Of a stretch of DNA of 64,000 nucleotides, positions 23,903-63,919 are shown piece by piece (within the stretch, counting starts at the first letter, position 1; every line of letters starts with the position of its first letter). Under the pieces are notes generated by a model, which did no database searches, was not told where the DNA came from, and was given only the letters and a program-made list of their open reading frames with translations. Where the stretch lies: positions 582,862-646,861 of the forward strand of contig NZ_PKOJ01000002.1 of the NCBI RefSeq assembly GCF_002860325.1, read 5' to 3'. The position numbers were made by a program, and so were the translations under genes. The DNA comes from Neptunicoccus cionae (lineage in GTDB: Bacteria; Pseudomonadota; Alphaproteobacteria; Rhodobacterales; Rhodobacteraceae).

Positions 23903-24076
23903 GGCCTTGGCGTCCTTTCAGTTAACGCGGTTGCAGTCTATGTAAGCAGCCTCCTGATATTCCCAGTCCCAGAACGCCCTTGCCCATACGACAAAATCAC
24001 CCGTGGGCGAAACTCGCTGACGGGTGGCGATCCTGAGACCGGAAGGCTGGTGCTTCCAATGGATAAAGCAGCGTTT

Positions 24077-48436: not shown

Positions 48437-48512
48437 GCCCCTATAGCTCAGCTGGTAGAGCAACTGATTTGTAATCAGTAGGTCCGCGGTTCGAGTCCGT
48501 GTGGGGGCACCA
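48437..48512 (+). tRNA. tRNA-Thr(TGT), element integration site
   Basis: Cloverleaf by eye: acceptor GCCCCTA with TGGGGGC, D-stem GCTC/GAGC, anticodon stem ACTGA/TCAGT around TTTGTAA (anticodon TGT), then the T-arm and encoded CCA. The 3' 46 nt are repeated exactly at the far end of the integrated element. The element therefore restores an intact tRNA gene at this end. Confidence 0.95.
48467..48512 (+). repeat. attL core (46-bp direct repeat within tRNA-Thr)
   Basis: Identical over 46 bases to the copy near the right end. It begins inside the anticodon stem-loop and ends with the encoded CCA. Sequences outside the 46 bases differ on both sides. Confidence 0.93.
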
Positions 48513-48653: not shown

Positions 48654-49898
48654 ATGCCCCATATCAAATTCACCGACACCAACGTCGGCGCGATTCCGAC
48701 GCCGGACAAGACTGTCTGGTACACAGACCCTGAGCAGAAAGGCTTGCGCCTTTGTGTGACAAAGACCGGCGTTAAGACTTGGTACGTCAACAAGTGGGAT
48801 CCGACGGCGAACAAAGTGCGCTCGGTCAAGCTCGCCCAATGGGCGTCGAAGGTGACGCACTGCAAATGGGCGAAGGATCAGCGCGGCCTTGTCGCGCATG
48901 GCATCGTGTCGGGCGACGTCTTGAACAAGGCGGAGACACGGGCGAAGGCGGCGGTCGAGCGTGCCAACGCGCTGCCGACGTTTCGCGAGGCGCTTGAACA
49001 ATTCATCGAACACCGCACGACCAGCAGGCAATCGGGCAAGGCGCGGATGATGGAGGCAACGGCCAAGGACTACCGCGCGACGTTCAACAAGCATCTGGCG
49101 CAATGGGCGGACGTGCATGTGGACAGGTTGCCGATTCTTGAGATCAATCAATACTTGAATGCGGTGCAGATCACGCGCCCGAACGCCGCCCACGTCGCGG
49201 CAACTGTGGCCGGGGCCACGGTTCGCTTCATCAACAAGCTCTGCGCCCTTGCTCTGCCGATCCCGTCGCTGCTGGAAGGCACCAAGATGCGGTCGTGCGT
49301 CGAGACAGGCAAACTAGACATGCAAGTCCCATGGGTGGACCGTTGGGACGAGATCGAAGAAATTCCGAATGAGCATATCCGCCTGTGTTGGAAGATCACT
49401 TGGTACACGGGCTTCCGAGGCCGTGGGCTGCGCGCTTTGACTTGGGACCAGATTGATCTCGACGACGGTGTTGTGACCTTCGACAGGCTCAAGCGTCAGG
49501 AGGTTGAGCGCACCATCGTTCTCGCGGACGATGTGGTCAGGTTGTTTAAACGCCTTCACGAAATTCGCTATGATGACTGTGAATGGGTGTTCCCGTCGCG
49601 TGTCGTGCGCCGGGAAACGCGCGGCCACTTGGACGTGCTGGACAAACTGCCTCTGACGAAGCCGGGTGACATGCGCCATTTCTGGATGACCGTTGCGCGG
49701 GAGGTAGCCCCGCGTCACGTTCACAGGTGGCTGGCACAGCAGACCATGACCGACAATGACCTGCGGATGCTCGGCCATTATGGCGAACCGACGTATGAGG
49801 AACAGAAGGCAGCGGCCAATGCGATTGCGGCGGCGATCAGCAAGCGGATTCAGGCAGCACCTTCTTCCGTTGTTGAATTGCGCCGAAACACCGCCTAA
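48654..49898 (+). CDS. Tyrosine site-specific integrase
   Basis: Phage-type integrase, 414 aa, that would recombine the tRNA-Thr sites. A DUF4102-like N-terminal part (about 1-60) precedes the SAM-like core-binding domain (about 105-200) and the catalytic domain. Catalytic residues visible are Arg in TGFRGRGLRAL (about R255), a beta-hairpin Lys (about K280), Arg in GDMRHFW (about R341), the GH pair in LGHYG (about H375) and nucleophile Tyr in PTYEEQ (about Y381). The His normally opening the HxxR box is Gly/Pro here. It reads away from attL, 141 bp from the tRNA. Confidence 0.9.
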   Translation: MPHIKFTDTNVGAIPTPDKTVWYTDPEQKGLRLCVTKTGVKTWYVNKWDPTANKVRSVKLAQWASKVTHCKWAKDQRGLVAHGIVSGDVLNKAETRAKAAVERANALPTFREALEQFIEHRTTSRQSGKARMMEATAKDYRATFNKHLAQWADVHVDRLPILEINQYLNAVQITRPNAAHVAATVAGATVRFINKLCALALPIPSLLEGTKMRSCVETGKLDMQVPWVDRWDEIEEIPNEHIRLCWKITWYTGFRGRGLRALTWDQIDLDDGVVTFDRLKRQEVERTIVLADDVVRLFKRLHEIRYDDCEWVFPSRVVRRETRGHLDVLDKLPLTKPGDMRHFWMTVAREVAPRHVHRWLAQQTMTDNDLRMLGHYGEPTYEEQKAAANAIAAAISKRIQAAPSSVVELRRNTA

Positions 49899-50039
49899 AT
49901 TGAACGCATCAATACCTCCATGCCTATAGGTAGTGACCCGGATAGGTGTGAGACCGACGCGTGAGAGTAGTGGCATTTCCACTCAGGAAGCGGGAGACGC
50001 GGTTCGGTCATGTGGGTTCCCATCACAGGACCTATATTC

Positions 50040-50276
50040 ATGACCATTGACCAAATCGCGTCACAAATCGACTCTCTCCGGGCGGACTTGATCCGTTCAA
50101 ATCCACCACTGATAATGACCAGCGCCGAAGCCGCCGAGTTTCTTGGCGTGTCAGATGAAACGATGCTTCGCTGGCGCAAAGACGGTTTCGGGCCGTCATA
50201 TTCACAGCCCAATTGCCGAATTGTGCGATACCTTCGCGACGACGTGGTCGCATGGCTCGAGGAGAATCGGTGTTGA
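50040..50276 (+). CDS. Excisionase/AlpA-like helix-turn-helix protein
   Basis: Small MerR-like DNA-binding protein of 78 aa. The HTH_17 signature is MTSAEAAEFLGVSDETMLRWRKDGFGPSY followed by a CRIVRYLRDDVVAWLEE wing, given here as a description of about residues 26-76. Such proteins act as recombination directionality factors or as activators of integrase or packaging genes in satellites. The start behind an AGGA site is preferred over a Met ten codons earlier. Its end overlaps the next gene, so the two are coupled. Confidence 0.82.
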   Translation: MTIDQIASQIDSLRADLIRSNPPLIMTSAEAAEFLGVSDETMLRWRKDGFGPSYSQPNCRIVRYLRDDVVAWLEENRC

Positions 50277-51656: not shown

Positions 51657-51860
51657 TCGGGTCATCCTTCTTGATTGGGTTCGGGAACGTCAGACGTGCT
51701 CTCCGTTGCGGTGTTGATGCGTGGCATCATACAGGCAGCGGGCGGCGGCATGCGACTGTAATGGCAGGTAACGATAAGGGAGTTATAGGTGCAGGGGCGT
51801 TGAGGCAGGACGCTCGGTATTCTTGATGCGTCTATTCGCGCGCGCACACATATCTGTAAT

Positions 51861-51902
51861 AAAATAATGATGCACTTAGGCGGTCATTCGCATCATTATT
51901 TT
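51861..51902. repeat. 13-bp inverted repeat, candidate origin or bidirectional regulatory site
   Basis: AAAATAATGATGC and GCATCATTATTTT are perfect arms with a 16-nt spacer. The repeat is strikingly AT-rich in a GC-rich element and lies between CGCGCGCGCACACATAT on the left and ATATACGCACGCGCGCGC on the right, alternating tracts able to adopt unusual DNA structure. No initiator protein is recognised to pair with it. Confidence 0.6.
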
Positions 51903-51994
51903 CTTGCATATACGCACGCGCGCGCAATGCAGTGCATCACTGTCGCCCTGTCTCCTGTCAGAAAGACGTCCCCTTGAGGCGTCTCTCAAGCCCA

Positions 51995-52876: not shown

Positions 52877-53149
52877 ATGCCCCTGCACGTCACAATCCAG
52901 CCGACGCCTCACGGTTCCCGCCTCTTGGGCGAAGACATTCACACGGCCTTCCACATGGATGTGCCGCTGCCCCCTGATGACCTCCATCAACTGATCATCG
53001 CCGCCGCGAAATCCGACGACCTGCATCCGCGCGCCGAACTCATGGGCGTGATCGCTGATCGAACACCCGAAGGCGTCCGCATCCGCGTTGTCGCCAATGC
53101 GGCCCACTTCGACATTCCTTGGCCCCTGATCGTGCGAGGCATCAAGTGA
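52877..53149 (+). CDS. Unknown element protein, 90 aa
   Basis: Small protein with an AAGAAG site before its ATG. It has alternating beta-strand-like segments (GVIADRTPEGVRIRVVANAA) and a short helix (DDLHQLIIAAAKSDDL). Its stop overlaps the GTG start of the portal-like gene (GTGA), so translation of the two is coupled. No family recognised. Confidence 0.72.
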   Translation: MPLHVTIQPTPHGSRLLGEDIHTAFHMDVPLPPDDLHQLIIAAAKSDDLHPRAELMGVIADRTPEGVRIRVVANAAHFDIPWPLIVRGIK

Positions 53150-54528
53150 CCAAGATCAAGCACCGCACCTACCAAGAGCAGCGCCAAGCCTATGACAAAA
53201 TCCGCGATGTGATTGCGGGCGAAGACCGGCTGAAAAAAGCGGATGCTCGATATCTCCCTGAGCCAGAAGGAATGACAACCGCCCAATACACCCGCTATGT
53301 GCAAGGGTCGTCCTTCTATGCGGTCGCCGAGCGCACTTTGCGCGGCATGGTCGGTGCGGTGACGCGCAATGCCCCGGTCTTGGAATTGCCCGACCGCATC
53401 GCAGGGATGCGTGACGCGGCAACCTTCGAGGGGCATTCGCTCGACGTGCTTCTAGAAAGCGCCCTGCGCGAAGTCTTGTCCCTCGGCAGGTTTGCGATGC
53501 TGCTCGACTACCCGACCGACGGCGCGGCCCCCGGCTCTGCGCCGTTCATTTCCACTTTCGACGCAGAGTCGATCTTGGACTGGAAAGAGGAACTTGTCGG
53601 CGGGCGTCAAAAGCTGACCTACCTGCGTCTGCACGAAACCAACCACGACCTCGAAGACACGGGCGTCGAACAACACCTCGTCCTGACACTTGATCCCGCC
53701 TACACGGTCATACGCTACCACGTCAAATCGCAGCGCAACGGCCCTGACCTTCAAACGGTCGAAGAGGTGCAAGTCGGCGAAGACATCACGCCGACAATCG
53801 ACGGCTCGCCCATGTTCGACATTCCGGCGGTGATCGTGTCGCCCTACAACCTGAAAGCGGATGTTGAAAAGCCGCCCTTCCTTGACCTCGTGAACGTCAA
53901 CCTCGCGCACTGGCGCGTGAGTGCTGACTATTACTGGTCGCTCTACCTGACGTCTCAGCCGACGCCTTGGGTCGCCGGGGCGCTCAACGAGAAGAACAAG
54001 CCGAGGCAAATCGGCAGCGGCGCGTTCTGGGTTCTGCCTCAGGGGGCGCAAGCGGGAATGCTCGAATTTACTGGCGCAGGCATCGCCGCGCAAAAGACCG
54101 CTCTCGACGATCTGACGGCCCAAATGGCGACGCTTGGCGCACGGATGGTCTACGACGGCAAAGGCCGCAACGAGACCACCGACACGGCCCGTCTGCGTCA
54201 CCGCTCCGAACTGTCCCTGCTTCACAGCAGCGTCAACATGGTCGAAGCCGGTCTGACGAAACTCCTGCGCCTTGCCGCTGAGTGGACGCGTCCCGGCACC
54301 GCAGATGATGTTGTCTTCAAACTGCACCGCGACTTCGTGACCGCCCAGATGGACCCGGCCATTCTCACGGCCCTGCTCAGGGCATACACCGCTGGCGCGA
54401 TCTCGCACGATACCTTCCTAATGAACCTGAAGAAGGGCGAATTGATGGACGTGAACCGCGCCCTCGTCGATGAACGCGACCTGATCGAGGAGGACGATAA
54501 CGTGTTGCCCATGCCTGGGGTGGCGTGA
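53146..54528 (+). CDS. Phage portal-like protein (DUF4055 type)
   Basis: Protein of 460 aa resembling DUF4055 phage portal-type proteins, which form the dodecameric DNA entry ring of a capsid. Supporting segments are TYQEQRQAYDKIRDVIAGED at the start and MTTAQYTRYVQGSSFYAVAE, then the middle DLVNVNLAHWRVSADYYWSL. FWVLPQGAQAGMLEFTGAGI and the following helical stem/crown regions complete the portal-like pattern. The start is GTG with a GAGG site and a GTGA overlap. It lies upstream of the terminase genes, reversed from the usual terminase-then-portal order. Confidence 0.68.
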   Translation: MTKIKHRTYQEQRQAYDKIRDVIAGEDRLKKADARYLPEPEGMTTAQYTRYVQGSSFYAVAERTLRGMVGAVTRNAPVLELPDRIAGMRDAATFEGHSLDVLLESALREVLSLGRFAMLLDYPTDGAAPGSAPFISTFDAESILDWKEELVGGRQKLTYLRLHETNHDLEDTGVEQHLVLTLDPAYTVIRYHVKSQRNGPDLQTVEEVQVGEDITPTIDGSPMFDIPAVIVSPYNLKADVEKPPFLDLVNVNLAHWRVSADYYWSLYLTSQPTPWVAGALNEKNKPRQIGSGAFWVLPQGAQAGMLEFTGAGIAAQKTALDDLTAQMATLGARMVYDGKGRNETTDTARLRHRSELSLLHSSVNMVEAGLTKLLRLAAEWTRPGTADDVVFKLHRDFVTAQMDPAILTALLRAYTAGAISHDTFLMNLKKGELMDVNRALVDERDLIEEDDNVLPMPGVA

Positions 54529-55247: not shown

Positions 55248-55616
55248 ATGGCCGACGAAAACGACAAGCAAGCAGAAGCCCTAATTGCCGCACTCGCACC
55301 GAAAATCGCAGAGGCGATCCTTCCCCAAATCACGGAATCCGTTGAAACCCAAATGAAGGGTCTCAAGGACAAGAACGACGAGCTTCTGGACAAGCTCGCG
55401 AAGCAGAAAGCGGACGACAACCACAGCAAGCTGCTCGCCGCCGCTGAAAGCCAGTACCAAGCCCGCCTTGACGGCGACGGCGTGTATCAGGGGCGCAAAC
55501 CCGGCGACTCGATCAAGATCAAGAAGTCCGATGCGCGAAACGTGAAGGCGTACCGCGACGCCAAGGCTCTGGCCGAAAAACAGGGCGTGCCGCTTGAGAT
55601 CGTGGCCAATGACTAA
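55248..55616 (+). CDS. Scaffold-like coiled-coil protein
   Basis: Acidic, Ala/Glu/Lys-rich protein of 122 aa with a strong central coiled coil (LKDKNDELLDKLAKQKADDN) and a more ordered end (YQGRKPGDSIKIKKSDARNV). Size and composition recall phage scaffolding or head-completion factors, but this is inference from context. GAGGA precedes the ATG. Its end overlaps the TerS-like gene by 8 nt. Confidence 0.65.
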   Translation: MADENDKQAEALIAALAPKIAEAILPQITESVETQMKGLKDKNDELLDKLAKQKADDNHSKLLAAAESQYQARLDGDGVYQGRKPGDSIKIKKSDARNVKAYRDAKALAEKQGVPLEIVAND

Positions 55617-56271
55617 GGTCACTCTGGTGCCCGGAAAGGGGCCGGTGGAGACCCCACGCAAGAAGCCCGGACCGCCCAAAGGCACGCCGCGAAAGAAAAC
55701 CCAGCCGCACAAAATGGCGGTGCTCCCGGATGCAAAACGGGAGCATTACACGCGGGAGATCGTTCTCGGGCGCATGTCGATGTTTCAGGCGGGCAAAGAG
55801 CTTGGAATTTCTGATACGTCGGTTGCGCGGTATATCACCCAACTCCCCGAAGAGGAAAAACTGGCGATCCTCGCGACCGCAATGCACGACGCCAAAGTCA
55901 AAACGGCGATGCAGCACGCGGCCATCGTCAATGAGTTTGGCGAGGACACCGACAAAGACCTCAAATGGGTTCTGCGTGAGCTAAAAGCCCTTCTGGAATC
56001 CGCTAAGGGCGACGAAGACCGCATGATGCAGTTGGGCGCGCTGAAAGAGCTTCGTCAGAGCCTCATGTCGCTGGCCGACCTGCATGGCAAGCTGAACAAG
56101 AAGATGGACATCCACCTGAACCTGAACGAAAGCCCTCAATTCATCCAGTTGCGTTCGATAATCCTGAAAGTGCTCAACAACCACCCCGCCGCGAAGCACG
56201 AATTTCTGAACGAGATGGACGCTATGGGGGTCATTCAGGAACCTGTCCTTGTCGATGATCGGAGGCCGTGA
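55609..56271 (+). CDS. Terminase small subunit-like protein
   Basis: Protein of 220 aa with a basic, Pro/Lys-rich arm at the start, an HTH near 55-80 (GRMSMFQAGKELGISDTSVA) and a long helical oligomerisation segment (LKWVLRELKALLESAKGDED). That layout is typical of TerS proteins that recognise pac/cos DNA. It lies just upstream of the large terminase genes, which supports the call. Sequence similarity to a specific TerS family is not claimed. Confidence 0.68.
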   Translation: MTKVTLVPGKGPVETPRKKPGPPKGTPRKKTQPHKMAVLPDAKREHYTREIVLGRMSMFQAGKELGISDTSVARYITQLPEEEKLAILATAMHDAKVKTAMQHAAIVNEFGEDTDKDLKWVLRELKALLESAKGDEDRMMQLGALKELRQSLMSLADLHGKLNKKMDIHLNLNESPQFIQLRSIILKVLNNHPAAKHEFLNEMDAMGVIQEPVLVDDRRP

Positions 56272-56459
56272 TGCCGTCTCAAGTCGCAAAAGCCGCCGTT
56301 GGGATCGTGAACCAACTCGAAAAGGTCGATCTCGAAAGCCCCAGCGATATGCGCGAACAGTTCGAGTCTGCGCCGCCCATCGTCGTCAAACTCCTGTCCG
56401 AATTGGCCGCGCGCCGGATGCTGAAACCAGCGACACAGTGGCCGGGGCAAAACCGATGA
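56271..56459 (+). CDS. Small element protein between TerS and TerL
   Basis: 62-aa helical protein (SQVAKAAVGIVNQLEKVDLE ... LLSELAARRMLKPATQWPG). Its ATG overlaps the TerS stop by one base and has GGAGG 5 nt upstream; its stop overlaps the TerL ATPase start (ATGA). Such tight coupling argues it is real. No family recognised. Confidence 0.7.
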   Translation: MPSQVAKAAVGIVNQLEKVDLESPSDMREQFESAPPIVVKLLSELAARRMLKPATQWPGQNR

Positions 56460-57232
56460 TCCACGACCCGCACCTTCTGTCCTTCCTGCAAGGCCTGACG
56501 GTCAGCCTCGATCCTGTCGAACGGTTCCGTCTGGCTATCGGTGAGCCTGATCCTTGGCAACGAACGCTGCTGTCCACCGATCCGCGTTTAAACGAGGCGG
56601 ACAGAATGGTCCTCGCCTTGTGCGGGCGGCAGTCAGGCAAATCGACCTCTGCGGGTGGTCTCGGCTATGACGATTTCTCTCAGGGCAAGACGGTGATCCT
56701 GACCGCTCCCAGCCTGCGGCAATCGACAGAATTGTTCCGTCGGATTTTGGAATTCAAGAACACCGATCCATTCTGCCCGCCCATCGTGCGCCAGACGCAG
56801 ACGGAACTTGAGGCGCACCCATCGCACGGCGGGCGGATCATCGTTGTTCCTGCAACCGACCAAGCGCGCGGGATGACGGCGGACACGATCATTGCCGACG
56901 AGGCCTGTTTCCTCGACGACGATGCTCTGACGGCCTTCTTCCCAATGAGGCGCGAAACCGGGCGCATTTTCCTTCTGTCCACTCCGAACCTGCGCACCGG
57001 CTATTTCTACGAGACATGGACAGGTGACAAACAGGTGCGCCGCATCATGGCGCGCTCCATCGACATCCCCCGGCGCGCGGCGCAAGTCGCCTTCGACAAA
57101 GCAACCATGTCCGACACCACCTTCCGGCGCGAACACCTGTGCGAGTTTGTTGGCTCCGGCACGCCCCTCCTGTCTTGGGACACGCTCGAAAACTCAAGCA
57201 ACCCGAACATCAACGCATTGGAGCTGTCATGA
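56456..57232 (+). CDS. Large terminase, ATPase half (split TerL)
   Basis: Packaging motor ATPase, 258 aa. Walker A is CGRQSGKST (residues 56-64), Walker B with catalytic Glu is DTIIADEAC near 146-154, and the coupling motif is LLSTPN. It stops exactly where other large terminases continue into the nuclease: the next gene begins inside its stop codon (ATGA) in another frame and encodes that nuclease. Together the two make about 497 aa, normal for one TerL. Possible single-polypeptide production by -1 frameshifting is not excluded, though no classic slippery heptamer was seen. Confidence 0.85.
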   Translation: MIHDPHLLSFLQGLTVSLDPVERFRLAIGEPDPWQRTLLSTDPRLNEADRMVLALCGRQSGKSTSAGGLGYDDFSQGKTVILTAPSLRQSTELFRRILEFKNTDPFCPPIVRQTQTELEAHPSHGGRIIVVPATDQARGMTADTIIADEACFLDDDALTAFFPMRRETGRIFLLSTPNLRTGYFYETWTGDKQVRRIMARSIDIPRRAAQVAFDKATMSDTTFRREHLCEFVGSGTPLLSWDTLENSSNPNINALELS

Positions 57233-57948
57233 CCCCAGACAACCCGCCTAAGTATGAATTCCTGAAAGACGGACGCGTTGTCCTGCCATCGAACGCCGAC
57301 CCCGCGGCCTTTGGGACGGTCGTTCACGGCTGGCTGAAACATCATGTGGGCATGGATTTGGGGCGCAACGACCCGTCGGCAATCGTGGTAATCCGCGACG
57401 AATGCTATCCGCAATTCACGGGTCGAGGGTTCGAGCAAGAACTTGGCCCGCGCAAATGCACCGTCGTCTTTCAAGAGACGATCCAGCTTTACTCCTACAC
57501 CGACCTTGCCGATTTCCTCGCGCGGCGTCTAAACCAAATTCCGCACTGGTCCCTCGCCATCGACGCATCAGGCTTGGGCGCACCTTTCTCCTCGACCTTG
57601 GACAATGCAGGGATCGAACACCACGCCGTCGTCATGACCGCAGGCGCGAACATGTCCCGCAGCGGCAAGGACGTGAAAATCGCGAAAACGATGCTTCTGG
57701 AGAATATGGCCGTCGGCCTTGAGACGGGCGCACTGACCGTCGCCCACGATCTTGAAGGCAAGCAAGACTTGCTGAATGAGATCGCAAGCTTTGAACTCGC
57801 CAGCACGTCTTCGGGCAATCTCGTGTTGCAGGGTGGTGGAAAAGGCCACCACGCCGACCGGGCCATCGCAACAGCCCTCGCATACCTGTCTGCAACTCAT
57901 CTCGAAACGACCCTCAGCGGCTCGTATCGGCTGCACGGCTGGGCGTAG
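57229..57948 (+). CDS. Large terminase, nuclease half (split TerL)
   Basis: RNase H-like terminase nuclease, 239 aa. The three metal-binding acids are in place: Asp43 in GMDLGRNDPSAIVV, Asp112 in AIDASGLGAPF and Asp210 in HHADRAIATALAYL. It would cut concatemeric DNA at the start and end of packaging. Translation is coupled to the ATPase half through ATGA. An upstream in-frame start would overlap the ATPase gene by 30 codons and is less likely. All catalytic residues survive, so the split looks functional rather than decayed. Confidence 0.83.
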   Translation: MTPDNPPKYEFLKDGRVVLPSNADPAAFGTVVHGWLKHHVGMDLGRNDPSAIVVIRDECYPQFTGRGFEQELGPRKCTVVFQETIQLYSYTDLADFLARRLNQIPHWSLAIDASGLGAPFSSTLDNAGIEHHAVVMTAGANMSRSGKDVKIAKTMLLENMAVGLETGALTVAHDLEGKQDLLNEIASFELASTSSGNLVLQGGGKGHHADRAIATALAYLSATHLETTLSGSYRLHGWA

Positions 57949-57989
57949 CTACACCGACGCGAAAATCGCGCAGGTGTAACTAGACAGTG

Positions 57990-58427
57990 TCAGAAGTTTT
58001 CGGGAGGGAAAGCGTACTGAATTTGGAAGGCTGGCGACACCCAAGGTCCAACGCCACGCCCCTCGCGTTTTCGTACCCCGTGCGAGTAGCATGTGTGCCG
58101 GACGCGCTTCGACAATTTGTGCCTCTCTCGCACGCGTTCCCAAGCTTCTTCTGATAGTTCCGACTTAAAGAAATGGAAACGCGATTCTAGCGTCACAGGC
58201 CCAACTTCTTCGCAACCATATAGGAAAACCCGCCCGTCTTCTTCAGAAACGTTGCCAGACATAATCTGGCGATAATTGGGTCGTTTAGCTTTTCGTCCCA
58301 TTGAAAGTAACTCCTTTCCGGTGTTGTCACCTTGGCGATGGCGATCAGATGAAAGGAGAAGGTACCAGCCATCAATGGAACCAACGCCGTATTCGCCGCG
58401 CATTGCGCAGCAGAATTCGCATGTCAT
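57990..58427 (-). CDS. Cys-containing hypothetical protein, 145 aa
   Basis: Minus-strand gene between the terminase and cargo operons, with GGTGG 6 nt before the ATG. It starts MTCEFCCAMRGEYGVGS, a CxxCC cluster that could bind metal. A basic patch (MGRKAKRPNYRQIMSGN) follows, then a structured middle (GRVFLYGCEEVGPVTLESRF) and an Arg-rich helix (EEAWERVRERHKLSKRVRH). No family recognised. It is divergent from the helicase and could be its regulator or a separate cargo gene. Confidence 0.55.
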   Translation of the reverse strand: MTCEFCCAMRGEYGVGSIDGWYLLLSSDRHRQGDNTGKELLSMGRKAKRPNYRQIMSGNVSEEDGRVFLYGCEEVGPVTLESRFHFFKSELSEEAWERVRERHKLSKRVRHTCYSHGVRKREGRGVGPWVSPAFQIQYAFPPENF

Positions 58428-58781
58428 GATTTCCACCGTTGATTGTTGCGAGCAGAGGGCGCACCCATGTGACCGCAGGTTACATGATACTCAAAGTGAG
58501 AGCTGGGAGTCAATATTTAAGTACTTGAAAACAAGCACGTTTAAACGCCCCCGTTTAAACGTGAGCAGAGCGCATAACCCGCGATCTCATCGTGCTCGCT
58601 GCAAACGCCCGGGTCGATGTGCTTTGAGGTCGACGAGTGACCCCATCGGTAGGCGAGGCTGCCGGTCAACCAACTTCAAGTTCTCATCAGAGAGACCACT
58701 TTCGGTTGTGGATTCGTGTTTGCTTCACCCACGCATGTAAGCTAGCGTGCAGGTAAAAAGAAATGATGAGGTTTGCAAAAA
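58428..58781. other. Divergent control region of the cargo block
   Basis: 354 nt between the Cys-containing gene and the helicase. It includes the 12-bp inverted repeat listed next. Composition shifts here from the GC-rich packaging module to the AT-richer cargo. No other gene is credible. Confidence 0.55.
58536..58563. repeat. Perfect 12-bp inverted repeat with CCCC loop
   Basis: CACGTTTAAACG and CGTTTAAACGTG. Each arm itself contains the 8-bp palindrome GTTTAAAC, giving two identical sites in mirror arrangement about 220 bp before the helicase. It could be a paired operator or a strong hairpin. Confidence 0.7.
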
Positions 58782-61370
58782 ATGGCTTTTAAAACCGGTA
58801 CTTCCGCAATGACAGCGACTGCGACCCCGGCAGATCATTTTAAGACACTAACGAAGCGGCAGTACCCAGATGTAATGCCTCATCAAAAGGATATTCTTGA
58901 AACCTATGCTTCGGAATTCTCGGAGAAAGCCGATGTAGCGTTGCAACTCCCCACCGGAAGCGGGAAAACCCTTGTTGGTCTCTTGATCGCCGATTGGAGA
59001 CGGCAAAAATTTGGCGAACGCGCTGTATACCTCTGCCCGACCAGACAACTAGTCAGTCAAACAGTCAATCAAGCCATCAACCGCTACGGGATCGATGTCG
59101 TTGATCTTTCAGGTAGTAAAAAGAACTTTACGCCAGCTGACAAAACAGCGTTCCTGACAGGCACAAAGTTAGCGATTAGCACATATTCTGGTTTATTTAA
59201 CACGCACCCATTCTTTGAAGATCCCGATTTGATTATCGTTGATGATGCACATGCCGCGGAAAACTACATCGCAAATATGTGGTCTCTAGAAATTGCGGCA
59301 GGCACCCCGCTGCATTCAGCGATGGCAGAATTTTTGAGGCCACATATTGAACCGCAAGATCATTCTCGGCTTACAGGAGACTGGATAGGGTCAGCCGATA
59401 GCACCTGGATAGAAAAGCTTTCCACCCCTTTGGTCTCCAAGCTCGAGACGAGCTTTTCTGATATAATAGATGGTCACGCGGACATTGATAATGATCCAGA
59501 GTTGTATTTTAAATGGTCGCTACTGCGGGGACACTTGGATGCATGCCACGTTTATTTAGGATCGCGAGAAATCCTAATTCGCCCGCTGATCCCGCCTACA
59601 TCGATGCACCCTCCTTTTGCCAATGCCACCCAAAGGATATTCATGTCTGCTACTTTGGGAAAGGGAGGGGATCTCGAAAGGCTTACTGGCCGTAAGTCAA
59701 TAGACCGCCTCAAAGCTCCAGATGGTTTTCAAAGTGCAGGTGTTGGTCGGAGGTTTTTCATTTTCCCAGGGTTGTCATTGACAGGAAGTGATACTGATGG
59801 GCTGAGACTCAGCATGCAACAACGCGCAGGAAGATCGCTAATTCTTACCCCCTCTGTTGCGCAAGCTAACGCTCATACCGCATTGGTAGATGAGCACCTT
59901 AGTGGTTACCAAGTCTTTGATAAAGATGATATAGAATTGGACAAACAGCCGTTCGTTGCTTCCGCCAAGGCTGTCGCAATTCTGGCAAATCGTTTTGATG
60001 GTATCGATTTCCCTGGGGATGAATGTCGTCTCCTATGTGTGGACGGGCTTCCAAAAGCAATGAACGCTCAAGAGCGGTTTATCATGTCGAAGATGGGCGC
60101 AACCGCACTATTCAATGAAAGAATACAAACTAGAATCCTTCAAGCTGTTGGTCGCTGTACCCGGGCACTGCAAGATCGCTCCGCCGTATTCATCACCGGC
60201 GTAGAGCTTGTCGATTTTCTCGCTGATAGTCGAAAGTGGATGTATTTTCACCCTGAACTGCAAGCTGAATTAGCTTTCGGATTGAACCAGTCAACCAACG
60301 TGACCGCCCAAGATATCTATGAAAATTTCGAGATGTTTATGAACAACGATGCAGACTGGTCTGGAGCCGACGGCATGATCAGAAATTCAATAAGCAGCTT
60401 TGTTCAAGCAGATTTTCCAGCAATGGAAGAGCTTTCTTTAGTTGCTAAACACGAGGTGGCTTACCAAGAGGCTGTTTGGAACAAGAACTTCAACGGCGCA
60501 CTAGCTGAGGCAAAGAATGTGTTGTCACAGCTGCAGCATCCTGACTTACGTGGGTATCGCGCTCTCTGGCATTATTTGGCGGGGTCATCAGCCCTTAAGC
60601 TGTCAGGAACTAATACTGACGCACAGGCTGTTGCCGCTAGGCTGCAATTTTCAAAATCCCGCAGTGCGGCGCCTTCGGTTTCTTGGCTAAATGCCTTGGT
60701 GCGCGATGTGAGTGGTCTTGAGGACGATGTGGGTCCACATCAAAATACCGAGGTTCTGAAACAAGTTGAAGCGCTTGAACAGCAATTTCTCACAATGGGC
60801 ACGGTCAACAACATCAAGTTTGAGAAAAGGGTGGCGCAGGCTTTGGCAGAGCTCGACAGTGCAAATACATTTGAAGCGGGTCAAGTCAGCCTTGGAATCT
60901 TGCTTGGTTTTAGTGCCGGAAATGACGAATCCGACGCCGCACCAGACCCTTGGTGGCTAGGCGACACATTGGGAGTTGTATTCGAAGCCCATGCCGACGG
61001 AACTGAAACTACAGTATTTGGCGCCAACAAAGCGCGCCAAGCAGCCAGTCACCCGAAATGGATAAAGGCGAATGTGCCGGGCGTAGGTGATGCCGAAATT
61101 TCACCAGTTCTGGTGACGCCATGTACCAGTGCGAAGTCAGGGGCAGAGCCGCATCTCGACGATGTTGGGTATTGGAAGCTAAGTTCGTTCCGGACTTGGG
61201 CCTTGCGGGCGACCGATGTGTTACGTGAACTAAAAGGCACCTTCCCCGGTGAAGGCGATCTCTTATGGAGAGATGAGGCCGTACAGAAGCTGGTGAATGA
61301 AGGTCTCACACTAGAAGCCATTATCGCTGATCGACCAGCGGCATCCGCAGCTATGCAGATTGTAGCTTAA
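58782..61370 (+). CDS. SF2 DEAD/DEAH-like helicase with possible C-terminal nuclease
   Basis: Protein of 862 aa. Motif I is LPTGSGKT (56-63), motif II DDAH (154-157) as in XPD/DinG-like enzymes, motif III MSATL (about 288-292), motif V NRFDGIDFPGDE and motif VI QAVGRCTR (454-461). All helicase motifs are intact. The C-terminal ~300 residues are unassigned. Near 723-740 the segment WLGDTLGVVFEAHADG followed by ARQAASHPKWIKAN resembles a PD-(D/E)xK core with His in place of the usual Lys (inference). The ATG behind GAGG is preferred to a TTG three codons earlier. First gene of the cargo block. Confidence 0.82.
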   Translation: MAFKTGTSAMTATATPADHFKTLTKRQYPDVMPHQKDILETYASEFSEKADVALQLPTGSGKTLVGLLIADWRRQKFGERAVYLCPTRQLVSQTVNQAINRYGIDVVDLSGSKKNFTPADKTAFLTGTKLAISTYSGLFNTHPFFEDPDLIIVDDAHAAENYIANMWSLEIAAGTPLHSAMAEFLRPHIEPQDHSRLTGDWIGSADSTWIEKLSTPLVSKLETSFSDIIDGHADIDNDPELYFKWSLLRGHLDACHVYLGSREILIRPLIPPTSMHPPFANATQRIFMSATLGKGGDLERLTGRKSIDRLKAPDGFQSAGVGRRFFIFPGLSLTGSDTDGLRLSMQQRAGRSLILTPSVAQANAHTALVDEHLSGYQVFDKDDIELDKQPFVASAKAVAILANRFDGIDFPGDECRLLCVDGLPKAMNAQERFIMSKMGATALFNERIQTRILQAVGRCTRALQDRSAVFITGVELVDFLADSRKWMYFHPELQAELAFGLNQSTNVTAQDIYENFEMFMNNDADWSGADGMIRNSISSFVQADFPAMEELSLVAKHEVAYQEAVWNKNFNGALAEAKNVLSQLQHPDLRGYRALWHYLAGSSALKLSGTNTDAQAVAARLQFSKSRSAAPSVSWLNALVRDVSGLEDDVGPHQNTEVLKQVEALEQQFLTMGTVNNIKFEKRVAQALAELDSANTFEAGQVSLGILLGFSAGNDESDAAPDPWWLGDTLGVVFEAHADGTETTVFGANKARQAASHPKWIKANVPGVGDAEISPVLVTPCTSAKSGAEPHLDDVGYWKLSSFRTWALRATDVLRELKGTFPGEGDLLWRDEAVQKLVNEGLTLEAIIADRPAASAAMQIVA

Positions 61371-61467
61371 GGCTGGGTGTGTGACCGATTTAGCCAATTT
61401 TGTTGCCTTAATGTTCCGCAGCACTTAGACAAGAGTATAACCTCTTAAACACGAAATCATTGATCCT

Positions 61468-62244
61468 ATGGCCGAAACTCAAATTGAATGGACCGATGCG
61501 ACATGGAACCCGGTTGCGGGCTGCTCGATCATGTCTGCTGGATGCACCAATTGTTATGCCATGACCATGGCAAAACGGTTGGAGGCAATGGGTGTGGACA
61601 AATATAAAGGTCTCACGAGGAAGTCTGGCAAACGGACCATCTGGAACGGCGTCGTCCACGAAGACTACAAATCGCTAGACATCCCCAAGAGGTGGCGCAA
61701 GCCGCGGAAGATATTTGTAAATTCCATGAGCGACCTCTTCCATCCAAATGTGTCGGAAGCATTTGTGGCCAAGGTGTGGGAGGTCATGCAAGCCACGCCA
61801 CATCACCACTATCAAATTCTCACCAAACGCCCCGATAGAATGGCCGACATATTGTCACGCATTTGTCCCACGCCGTTAAAAAATGTTTGGCTCGGAACAA
61901 GCGTCGAAGGAAAAGCTGTTGTTCATAGAATTGGTGAGCTCAGGGCTGTTCCAGCATCAATCCGCTTCATTTCGTTCGAACCGCTGATTGATAGCGTTGG
62001 GGATATCGATCTGACTGGGGTTGATTGGGCAATCGTCGGTGGGGAAAGCGGCAAAGACGCTCGCCCCATTAAAGAGCTTTGGATCGATGATATCCATCGC
62101 GCTTGCCGATTGTATGAGACGGCCTTTTTCTTCAAGCAGTGGGGCACTTGGGGGAAAGATAACAAGAAACGCTCAAAGAAATTGAATGGCCGCGATTACC
62201 GAGGGCAAACTTGGGATGAAATGCCATCTCAAGCTCAACTATAG
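61468..62244 (+). CDS. DUF5131 (Gp37/Gp68) three-Cys-motif protein
   Basis: Protein of 258 aa of the phage Gp37/Gp68 (PF07505) family. It opens IEWTDATWNPVAGCSIMSAG and continues CTNCYAMTMAKRLEAMG, giving Cys19, Cys26 and Cys29 (CX6CX2C), a radical-SAM-like iron-sulfur cluster motif. Further family blocks are FVNSMSDLFHPNVSEAFV, ILTKRPDRMADIL, NVWLGTSVEG, IRFISFEPLIDSVGDIDL and VGGESGKDARPI. The biochemical activity of the family is not established to my knowledge. It is followed by its usual partner TcmP. Confidence 0.9.
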   Translation: MAETQIEWTDATWNPVAGCSIMSAGCTNCYAMTMAKRLEAMGVDKYKGLTRKSGKRTIWNGVVHEDYKSLDIPKRWRKPRKIFVNSMSDLFHPNVSEAFVAKVWEVMQATPHHHYQILTKRPDRMADILSRICPTPLKNVWLGTSVEGKAVVHRIGELRAVPASIRFISFEPLIDSVGDIDLTGVDWAIVGGESGKDARPIKELWIDDIHRACRLYETAFFFKQWGTWGKDNKKRSKKLNGRDYRGQTWDEMPSQAQL

Positions 62245-62317
62245 GAATTGTTTTTGCTTTCATTTCCTCGTTCTATTTTCATCCTCAAAGAAAATAATAT
62301 TAGACAGATGGTGACGC

Positions 62318-63577
62318 GTGTCTAAAAAGCAAAATTTCAAATGGAAGATTGGCGCGCCGCTTCCCGGCATTGAAGCTCACACAGAGCGGAAACTCGAAGT
62401 CATCGAGCAGTATCTGGACGTTTACTTTGACACTGTAACTGCGAACCGCCGCATGGAAACACTCAGAATAACTATTGTCGATGGGTTTTGCGGTGGCGGA
62501 CTTTATCAAAAAGGTCGTGAAACGAGATATGGCAGCCCCTTTGCACTGCTAAATGCGGTAGAAAAGGCGAAAATTAGGGTCAATGCCGAGCGGCGCAAGC
62601 CTTTGGAAATTGTAGCGCACTTCTATTTTAGTGATGCAAATTCTTTGCATATGGCAGCCTTGCGCGATGAATTGTCTAAGAGTAAATTTTCAGAACAGTT
62701 AGACGAAAGCATTATCCTTCAAACCGGAGAGTTTGAAAATCTACTCCCAAAAGTGATTGCGGATATCAAGAGGCGCCAACGGCAAGGGCGAAGCTTCTTT
62801 GTCCTAGACCAATGGGGATACGTTGACGTTCCAGTTAATTGCCTTCAACAGATTTTCTCTAGCTTGGATAAGCCGGAGGCCATTCTAACTTTTTCGATAG
62901 ATGCGTTGTTAAACTACCTACGAACGGATGGTAGCGGTTTGGAGGGGCTGCGACAGTTTGGTATCTCGGAAGAATTCGTTTCCACTTGGCAGTCGCTTAA
63001 GGACGATGAGCAATTCGGTCGGGCAACCGCTCAGAGAACAATAATGGAGAACCTTCGCAGAAACAGTGGTGCGCACTTTTTCACCCCCTTCATGATGTAT
63101 TCCAAAACTGACAAACGTTGGATGTTGCTAGCACACCTTTCAAAGCACCAAGCCGCCCGAGACAAAATGCTTTCAGTACATTGGGATAAGCAAAATCACT
63201 TCCGGCATATTGGAAAAGGGAGCCTGTTTGAGCTTGGGTTCGACCATCGTCTAATTGAAAGCAAAGATTCCTTGTTTTCGTTTCGTGAGGATGACGAGAT
63301 TACTCTGTTGGGTGAATTGGAGAATGAGCTCCCAACCCGCGTCATGGACAACATGACTGAGGACATCCTCGCTGTCGAGCAGTTGCTATCTCAGATCGGC
63401 AATCTTACCGCTGCTCAAAACGATATGATCTTCAAAGTGCTTCAGAAGCTTGCTTCCGAGGGAGAAATTGAAGTTGAGAAGAAGGCTGGAGGTAGGAAGA
63501 AAGCTAGCACAAAGATTGAGGTGTCCGACATCTTAGTTCGACCGAGCCAGAGAATGCTGTTCACGAACTTTAGTTAA
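62318..63577 (+). CDS. tcmP: Three-Cys-motif partner protein TcmP
   Basis: Protein of 419 aa of the TcmP family, defined by its co-occurrence with three-Cys-motif proteins. A Rossmann methyltransferase-like motif I is TIVDGFCGGGLYQ (VDGFCGGG at 54-61), and the catalytic-like loop LDQWGYVDVPV (from 163) replaces the usual DPxG/DPPY form. The C-terminal part looks like a winged helix (IFKVLQKLASEGEIEVEKKA). Start codon is GTG. It follows the DUF5131 gene by 73 bp and is the last gene before attR. Confidence 0.87.
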   Translation: MSKKQNFKWKIGAPLPGIEAHTERKLEVIEQYLDVYFDTVTANRRMETLRITIVDGFCGGGLYQKGRETRYGSPFALLNAVEKAKIRVNAERRKPLEIVAHFYFSDANSLHMAALRDELSKSKFSEQLDESIILQTGEFENLLPKVIADIKRRQRQGRSFFVLDQWGYVDVPVNCLQQIFSSLDKPEAILTFSIDALLNYLRTDGSGLEGLRQFGISEEFVSTWQSLKDDEQFGRATAQRTIMENLRRNSGAHFFTPFMMYSKTDKRWMLLAHLSKHQAARDKMLSVHWDKQNHFRHIGKGSLFELGFDHRLIESKDSLFSFREDDEITLLGELENELPTRVMDNMTEDILAVEQLLSQIGNLTAAQNDMIFKVLQKLASEGEIEVEKKAGGRKKASTKIEVSDILVRPSQRMLFTNFS

Positions 63578-63850
63578 CAACCGGAATTTGGCATATTCGG
63601 TCCCAAAAGAGTCCGTGATCAAAGGTGGTCGGCGTCCCTTTACAAAACGAATGAGTCAGTCTTCTGCGCTCCTCTCGAGTGCAGTATAAGCCTGCGATAT
63701 TATCGATGGGAGTAGTTAATAATTGGTGTGGAATGTCATCATGGGCTTGTTGGCCGCTGCTCCAAGCGACCCTTGTGACATCCTTGTAATGCCCGACGCG
63801 CGTCCGGAAAAACACTGGTCTTCCAAGTATGTTAGCGTCTAGCCCAAGGC

Positions 63851-63896
63851 ATTTGTAATCAGTAGGTCCGCGGTTCGAGTCCGTGTGGGGGCACCA
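63851..63896 (+). repeat. attR core (46-bp direct repeat of the tRNA-Thr 3' half)
   Basis: Exact copy of the 3' 46 nt of tRNA-Thr, including CCA but lacking the 5' half, so it is not a functional tRNA. It closes the integrated element. The ~270 nt between TcmP and this site contain no credible gene. Confidence 0.93.
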
Positions 63897-63919
63897 TTTA
63901 AAACCCATATGACTGTGCA

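What the first reader, a model, noticed from the sequence alone, without database searches (positions are those of the whole stretch)
58782..63577. Helicase - DUF5131 - TcmP cargo cassette: candidate defence system in a satellite-like element
Three same-strand genes at the attR end of the element combine an SF2 helicase with a possible nuclease tail, a three-Cys (iron-sulfur/radical-SAM-like) Gp37/Gp68 protein and its methyltransferase-fold partner TcmP. The cargo position next to attR is where satellites and prophages usually carry anti-phage or inter-element systems. The DUF5131-TcmP pairing is a known co-occurrence. I do not know of a characterised system joining it to this helicase, so function is open.
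Basis: partly seen in the sequence, partly recalled or inferred. Interest (0 to 1): 0.82.

Follow-up and report, generated by a model that had tools for sequence, protein, structure and literature searches.

The report
Two phage-defence modules in one element
A mobile element inserted at a tRNA gene carries a relative of the anti-phage nuclease Hna next to a two-gene pair (DUF5131-TcmP) that is predicted to modify nucleic acid; the two likely serve as exchangeable phage-defence cargo, and genes of the same two families also sit beside the original Hna gene of Sinorhizobium.

Summary
The three genes are real and correctly placed. The helicase is a full-length relative of Hna, the single-gene abortive-infection helicase-nuclease of Sinorhizobium meliloti (PADLOC PDC-S28). 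It belongs to a sister subfamily whose nuclease lysine has moved from the ExK motif to the following helix: 84 of 84 scored homologues carry exactly one of the two lysines. DUF5131 has a conserved three-cysteine triad and a predicted radical-SAM fold; TcmP a predicted methyltransferase fold (nearest RlmJ). DUF5131 lies beside TcmP in 28 of 29 TcmP loci, but only 2 of the best 80 helicase loci carry TcmP nearby. These are therefore most likely two modules, not one three-gene system. Two results keep a link open: the founding hna locus on pSymA also has DUF5131-TcmP beside hna, and in a sister element helicase and DUF5131 share a recently exchanged block (dS 0.26 and 0.18, against 0.7-1.7 for backbone genes). 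Relatives of the element (portal 71-97% identical) carry other systems (DNA methyltransferase/restriction genes, DruA) in the same slot, so it is a cargo bay. Anti-phage activity, trigger and the pair's substrate are untested.

The parts
48437..48512 (+). tRNA-Thr(TGT); its 3' part is attL
48654..49898 (+). tyrosine integrase
   Evidence: Pfam PF00589, PHROG 1
50010..50276 (+). AlpA/excisionase-like HTH protein
   Evidence: PHROG 66
53119..54528 (+). portal protein (DUF4055)
55594..56271 (+). unnamed gene in the place of a small terminase subunit (name is a guess from position)
   Evidence: no family match; dN/dS 0.075 against sister element
56456..57232 (+). large terminase, ATPase half
   Evidence: PHROG 7579 and 2 (run on the longer ORF from 56249); start inferred from the 258-aa homologues
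57229..57948 (+). separate ORF after the terminase ATPase (ATGA overlap), possibly its nuclease half
   Evidence: PHROG 27743, unknown function; nuclease role inferred from position
58660..61603 (+). block of raised identity (93.6% over 2,946 nt) shared with the sister element on pSC52_1: helicase plus 5' end of DUF5131
58782..61370 (+). Hna-family SF2 helicase-nuclease, 862 aa (PADLOC PDC-S28)
60942..60947 (+). P721-D722 of the PD-(D/E)XK motif
   Evidence: P and D in 84 of 85 aligned homologues, 1 gap
60984..60992 (+). E735-A736-H737: the ExK position, Lys replaced by His
   Evidence: aligned with E727-x-K729 of S. meliloti Hna
61029..61031 (+). K750, the lysine in the following helix (labelled K746 in earlier scripts and notes; number checked)
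61468..62244 (+). DUF5131 (Gp37/Gp68) radical-SAM-like protein, 258 aa
   Evidence: Pfam PF07505; fold
61522..61554 (+). three-Cys motif C19-x6-C26-x2-C29
   Evidence: invariant in 22 aligned proteins
62318..63577 (+). TcmP, long form, 419 aa (GTG start): methyltransferase domain plus C-terminal wHTH
   Evidence: TIGR04474, PF22560, fold
62480..62500 (+). SAM-binding motif DGFCGGG (D55-G61)
   Evidence: D55, F57, G59, G61 invariant in 16 aligned TcmP
63840..63907 (.). attR, copy of the tRNA-Thr 3' end

Best explanation
The finding is two modules side by side in the attR-end cargo slot of a tRNA-integrated element: a full-length relative of the anti-phage nuclease Hna, which would likely abort infection by chewing single-stranded DNA, and a DUF5131-TcmP pair predicted to be a radical-SAM enzyme and a methyltransferase acting on nucleic acid. 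Module 1 (inferred from S. meliloti Hna biochemistry): the protein would sit in an ATP-bound inactive state until phage single-stranded DNA or a phage SSB releases it, then digest 3' single-stranded ends until phage replication and the cell fail. Its active site would be P721-D722 / E735 plus K750, the lysine having moved from the ExK position to the next helix. Module 2 (inferred from folds and conserved motifs): DUF5131 would use a [4Fe-4S] cluster held by C19, C26 and C29 for radical chemistry on a base or nucleotide, and TcmP would methylate the same substrate, most likely RNA because its closest fold is RlmJ. The modules would work independently and be carried together because the slot next to attR accumulates exchangeable defence genes.
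Against: Identity to S. meliloti Hna is only about 22-24%, and the residue whose loss kills its nuclease (K729) is H737 here. The dimer-loop residues T30/D31/P34 are not matched in the window protein (the alignment there is uncertain), so the ATP/dimer gating may not carry over. The Foldseek E-value for DUF5131 did not pass 0.001 (best 2.1e-3). By Foldseek the first match of TcmP is Trm1, not RlmJ. TcmP motif IV reads DQWG, not the DPPY that I recall for RlmJ-type enzymes, so it may not methylate as RlmJ does. Helicase and DUF5131 sit in one exchanged block, and hna and DUF5131-TcmP are neighbours again at the founding locus, both of which favour a link between the modules. I know of no phage experiment on either window module.
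Confidence: 0.66

Rival explanations
1. The three genes are one system: the DUF5131-TcmP pair makes a mark or modified nucleotide that triggers Hna or protects the host from it.
For: Helicase and DUF5131 fall in one exchanged block in the sister element. In S. meliloti and R. rhizogenes hna lies next to DUF5131-TcmP-long-TcmP-short, and NolR raises hna and the adjacent tcmP together (PMC12445080 Table 1, passages). TcmP lies 0.5 kb from the helicase in one planctomycete (L091) and the pair 3.8 kb away in Jannaschia.
Against: 78 of 80 helicase loci lack both genes in the flanks held (best 80 of 166; 41 of the 80 have both 10-kb flanks). A. tumefaciens pAt has DUF5131-TcmP-TcmP with no hna in the 20 kb examined. 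S. meliloti strains without pSymA, which carries the pair, regain complete resistance from hna alone (PMC12445080, passage). On holding the report against this passage I lowered this rival from 0.13 to 0.10.
Confidence: 0.1
2. DUF5131-TcmP is not defence but a nucleic-acid repair or RNA-maintenance pair that benefits the mobile element, as the likeness to spore photoproduct lyase would suggest.
For: Spore photoproduct lyase is the nearest fold of DUF5131 and RlmJ the nearest fold of TcmP.
Against: PADLOC lists the pair as phage-defence candidates (PDC-M30/M41), and three plasmid loci of the pair lie beside CBASS, Hachiman-type or restriction genes as annotated.
Confidence: 0.15
3. The helicase is nuclease-dead because ExK is ExH, and it works only as a DNA-stimulated ATPase or displaces phage proteins.
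For: H737 replaces the residue equivalent to K729, whose alanine change abolishes Hna nuclease.
Against: The loss is matched every time by a lysine in the next helix: 77 with helix Lys, 7 with ExK, none with both or neither. This migration is described for other PD-(D/E)XK families (PMC1913061, passages).
Confidence: 0.06

Closest known systems
Hna (SMa2245, S. meliloti pSymA; PADLOC PDC-S28; PDB 10uj, 9yhn, 9ykj)
   Same: Full-length SF2 helicase followed by a PD-(D/E)XK domain; P, D and E of the active site; Q39 of the Q motif; carried on plasmids and mobile elements
   Different: About 22-24% identity; separate well-supported subfamily; catalytic lysine in the next helix instead of ExK; dimer-loop residues T30/D31/P34 not matched
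DUF5131-TcmP pair (PADLOC PDC-M30 / PDC-M41; NCBIfam TIGR04474)
   Same: Adjacent genes, three-Cys motif, methyltransferase motif I, GMT-like wHTH
   Different: Ordinary long-TcmP member; motif IV is DQWG; lies beside an Hna relative
Satellite and prophage defence hotspots (P4-like and P2-like; PMC9122126, search listing with start of abstract only)
   Same: Backbone constant, defence cargo exchanged in one slot of an integrative element
   Different: Rhodobacterales element with own portal and terminase, no recognised capsid or tail gene, integrated at tRNA-Thr or tRNA-Lys
Hachiman (HamAB)
   Same: Helicase plus nuclease logic, weak helicase similarity (23 bits)
   Different: No HamA (DUF1837) found in the cassette; nuclease fused to the helicase

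Membership tests
Hna / PDC-S28 | SF2 helicase core (Walker A, DExH, motif VI) | tested here: met
   Key residues invariant in 86 aligned proteins; Pfam DEAD and Helicase_C_2
Hna / PDC-S28 | Similarity over the whole length, nuclease domain included | tested here: met
   PADLOC model positions 13-812 of 846; tblastn over residues 7-791; C-terminal hhalign probability 99.4
Hna / PDC-S28 | PD-(D/E)XK acidic residues and one active-site lysine | tested here: met
   P721, D722, E735 and K750; exactly one lysine in 84 of 84 scored homologues
Classic (S. meliloti-type) Hna subfamily | Lysine in ExK (K729) | tested here: not met
   H737 at that position; so filed as a sister subfamily, not as classic Hna
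Hna / PDC-S28 | Single-gene abortive infection triggered by phage SSB | not testable with these tools
   Needs phage assays
DUF5131-TcmP (PDC-M30/M41) | DUF5131 and TcmP profiles, adjacent genes | tested here: met
DUF5131-TcmP (PDC-M30/M41) | Three-Cys motif and radical-SAM fold | tested here: met
NCBIfam rSAM mobile pair A (TIGR04471) | Score over the curated cut-off of 355 bits | tested here: not met
   77.3 bits
Phage satellite | Integrative element without its own capsid and tail genes | tested here: met
   Portal and terminase ATPase are the only clear particle genes among 18 element proteins compared with PHROGs; unmatched and smaller ORFs remain
Phage satellite | Packaging with help of another phage | not testable with these tools
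   -
Hachiman | HamA (DUF1837) next to HamB | tested here: not met
   DUF1837 is not among the Pfam matches of the cassette; HamB similarity only 23 bits

The most novel reading that the evidence does not exclude
Hna has overlooked partners: DUF5131-TcmP makes a nucleic-acid modification that gates Hna (trigger or self-protection), a hidden part of the founding S. meliloti locus that the window's element carries as a compact three-gene cassette with a lysine-swapped Hna nuclease.
Probability: 0.09. Interest if true: 0.78.

Novelty: new variant of a known kind. Interest (0 to 1): 0.5.

Why it matters
It turns 'a helicase of unknown function' into a member of a family with solved structures, so its predictions can be tested at once. 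The lysine swap defines a second, wide-ranging Hna subfamily with a rewired nuclease site, a natural test of which Hna features (ExK lysine, dimer loop, ATP gate) are essential. DUF5131-TcmP lies beside hna both here and at the locus where Hna was found, so the single-gene reading of Hna can be checked against a concrete alternative. The element family gives a defence cargo bay in Rhodobacterales where backbone and cargo can be told apart.

Tried and rejected
Single three-gene system: rejected as the main reading because 78 of 80 helicase loci lack both other genes. Caveats: these are the best 80 of 166 loci found, only 41 of the 80 have both 10-kb flanks, and the pattern scan favoured the window's subfamily.

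A conserved partner gene of the helicase: clustering ORFs of 100 aa or more within 4 kb in 77 of the 80 loci found no family in more than 8 loci. The top clusters read, by eye from their sequences, as type I restriction subunits and a SIR2-like protein. Three loci were left out because the longest helicase ORF was under 2,300 bases (L107, L109, L110).

TcmP-short as the true partner of hna: rejected because A. tumefaciens pAt has DUF5131-TcmP-long-TcmP-short with no hna in the 20 kb examined, and hna relatives at 63%, 63% and 54% identity have neither gene in the 14-18 kb examined (checked by profile). A 271-aa ORF directly after one of these had no NCBIfam match.

Genome-wide association: in 385 Alphaproteobacteria genomes the loose E-value 0.001 tally (185 genomes) is mostly short helicase matches. 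I counted only the six matches with E at or below 2e-98; one of them (G438) has a stop inside. One further genome (G393) has a 74-residue partial match and TcmP, on different contigs.

Searching the portal in viral contigs gave no relative. Promoter and terminator scans found no more sites than shuffles, so they say nothing on co-transcription. QatC-like similarity of a gene near the sister element was not followed. The gene name terS rests on position only. In one search the large terminase was measured from 56249, upstream of its inferred start.
Full report
What is there. The window ends in a 15.4-kb integrated element bounded by tRNA-Thr(TGT) 48437-48512 and a 68-nt copy of its 3' end at 63840-63907. 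It carries an integrase, an AlpA-like protein, a portal protein, a large terminase ATPase with a separate following ORF, several unnamed ORFs, and then the three genes of the finding. Of 18 element proteins compared with PHROGs, only the portal and terminase ATPase are clear particle genes. The helicase's best start is ATG 58782. The gaps to DUF5131 and to TcmP are 97 and 73 bp.

The helicase is an Hna relative. PADLOC names it PDC-S28, and the S. meliloti Hna protein scores 1020 bits on one of the two PDC-S28 models, so PDC-S28 is Hna. The best solved structure by sequence is Hna itself (7.8e-33, residues 43-507), and the pSymA gene aligns over residues 7-791 (E 5e-36, 23.7%). PMC13381803 (abstract and parts 1-2 of 9 of the text; passages) reports that S. 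[quoted passage not shown]

A lysine swap. The window protein aligns with Hna at P712-D713-E727 (P721, D722, E735), but K729 is H737. A lysine in the following helix, K750 (called K746 in my scripts; number checked), fills in. Among 85 homologues (77 of the 80 genome loci plus 8 others; window left out), 84 could be scored: 77 have H, Y, N or F at the ExK place and K in the helix; 7 have ExK and H, D, A or E in the helix; none has both or neither. These are sequences, not independent events. Profile-profile comparison of the C-terminal domains supports the alignment (probability 99.4, E 3.4e-20), and all eight classic Hna used there have ExK. In a quick tree of 84 helicase regions the 80 window-type rows are one starred group apart from the four classic ones, and the label needs at least 3 changes; starred branches force only 1. 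PMC1913061 (passages) describes such migration of the motif III lysine to motif IV in other PD-(D/E)XK families. In PMC13381803 the word lysine does not occur in the main text.

Are they one system? Helicase side: DUF5131 or TcmP in the flanks of 2 of 80 genome loci, the best 80 of 166 found (L041 Jannaschia aquimarina, pair 3.8 kb away on the other strand; L091 Planctomycetaceae, TcmP 0.5 kb upstream without DUF5131 found). None of the 7 viral-contig loci with long matches (of 26) and none of 8 further Alphaproteobacteria loci (5; L027-L029) carries them. By genome, 6 of 385 have full-length Hna, 29 of 385 TcmP over cut-off, and only the window's genome has both. No other gene is a steady partner either. 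S. meliloti strains without pSymA, the replicon that holds the neighbouring pair, regain complete resistance from hna alone (PMC12445080, passage). So the coupling is loose at most. It is probably still more than chance: 30 over-cut-off TcmP matches in 385 genomes of roughly 1-6 Mb each would predict about 0.03 in the 1.2 Mb of flanks (rough estimate from rounded sizes and another set of taxa).

What keeps a link open. On pSymA the original hna gene is followed by TcmP-short on the same strand, then TcmP-long and DUF5131 facing it; R. rhizogenes pC6.5b has the same order with an IS3 between the two TcmP genes. PMC12445080 (passages) lists hna and SMa2243 (TcmP) as one putative transcription unit raised by NolR; DUF5131 is not mentioned there. 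The window's sister element on plasmid pSC52_1 has the helicase 97 bp before a DUF5131 whose similarity stops after 50 codons, where annotated IS3 transposases follow. Synonymous divergence is 0.26 for the helicase and 0.18 for the DUF5131 piece, but 0.70-1.69 for the six backbone genes measured. Identity jumps near 58,660-58,680 and runs to 61,603. Helicase and DUF5131 thus fall in one exchanged block.

The slot is a cargo bay. The portal gene finds relatives of the element in four other genomes of the order sample (97, 97, 81 and 71% identity; 19 of 390 genomes have any match, the window's included). G182 has integrase, portal and terminase-region proteins 95-99% identical to the window's (DNA 92-96% in the long aligned blocks; the 50213 ORF differs, 35%), the same tRNA-Thr site and an exact 46-nt repeat at its right end. 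Its slot holds a type II cytosine methyltransferase, a GHKL ATPase and a Methyltransf_35 protein. G354 (tRNA-Lys; portal and terminase-region proteins 90-99%, integrase 67%) has a methyl-directed restriction enzyme, a DNA methyltransferase and, about 0.1 kb from the contig end, a 38-residue DUF5131 fragment. G317 (60-75%; no integrase found in the piece held) has DruA and a GHKL ATPase. G225 shows no defence gene by eye after the terminase (not scanned). With the window and pSC52_1 this makes defence-type genes in the slot of 5 of 6 elements. The six measured backbone genes have dN/dS of 0.05-0.24 against pSC52_1, so the element looks selected rather than decaying.

Literature. Searches (40 of 397 listed, mostly an unrelated abbreviation) showed no paper on the DUF5131-TcmP pair's function and none that discusses it beside hna beyond the table row in PMC12445080. 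Two Pseudomonas papers name PDC-M30 once each (listing only, not read). Sather 2023 (first Hna paper) is not held, so it may say more.

Verdict. The best reading is a lysine-swapped Hna relative and a DUF5131-TcmP pair, loaded next to each other in the defence slot of a satellite-like element. Shown: gene content, family membership, residue patterns, exchange block, cargo exchange; predicted by model: the two folds. Inferred: nuclease activity, trigger, cell death, substrate of the pair, helper dependence.

Noticed in passing
window 56456-57948: The large terminase is split into an ATPase gene and a separate following ORF joined by an ATGA overlap; the same split is seen in the relatives L018, L224, L225 and L226.
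   Followed up: partly
L225 (G354) 524-2343: An element whose portal-terminase block is 93% identical in DNA to the window's sits at tRNA-Lys instead of tRNA-Thr; its integrase is divergent in the 5' part and 91% identical at the 3' end, as if a recombination within int had changed the target site.
   Followed up: no
L024 8221-11266, L198 and L199: The founding hna neighbourhood has two TcmP genes of different type (long, PDC-M30A; short, PDC-M41A) facing each other with one DUF5131; the same trio occurs without hna on A. tumefaciens pAt (L199).
   Followed up: partly
window 51838-51925: Inverted repeat with 36-nt arms (81% complementary, 16-nt loop) with alternating GC ends, between the AlpA region and the portal; function unknown.
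   Followed up: no
window 23990-24041: Rfam match to the ffh sRNA family (60.6 bits) on the minus strand.
   Followed up: no
window 57949-58659: About 0.7 kb between the terminase ORFs and the exchanged block aligns poorly with the sister element; part of it (57992-58262) matches, at 75% identity, the right end of the G182 element just before its attR (L224 15371-15641), hinting at reshuffled cargo junctions.
   Followed up: no
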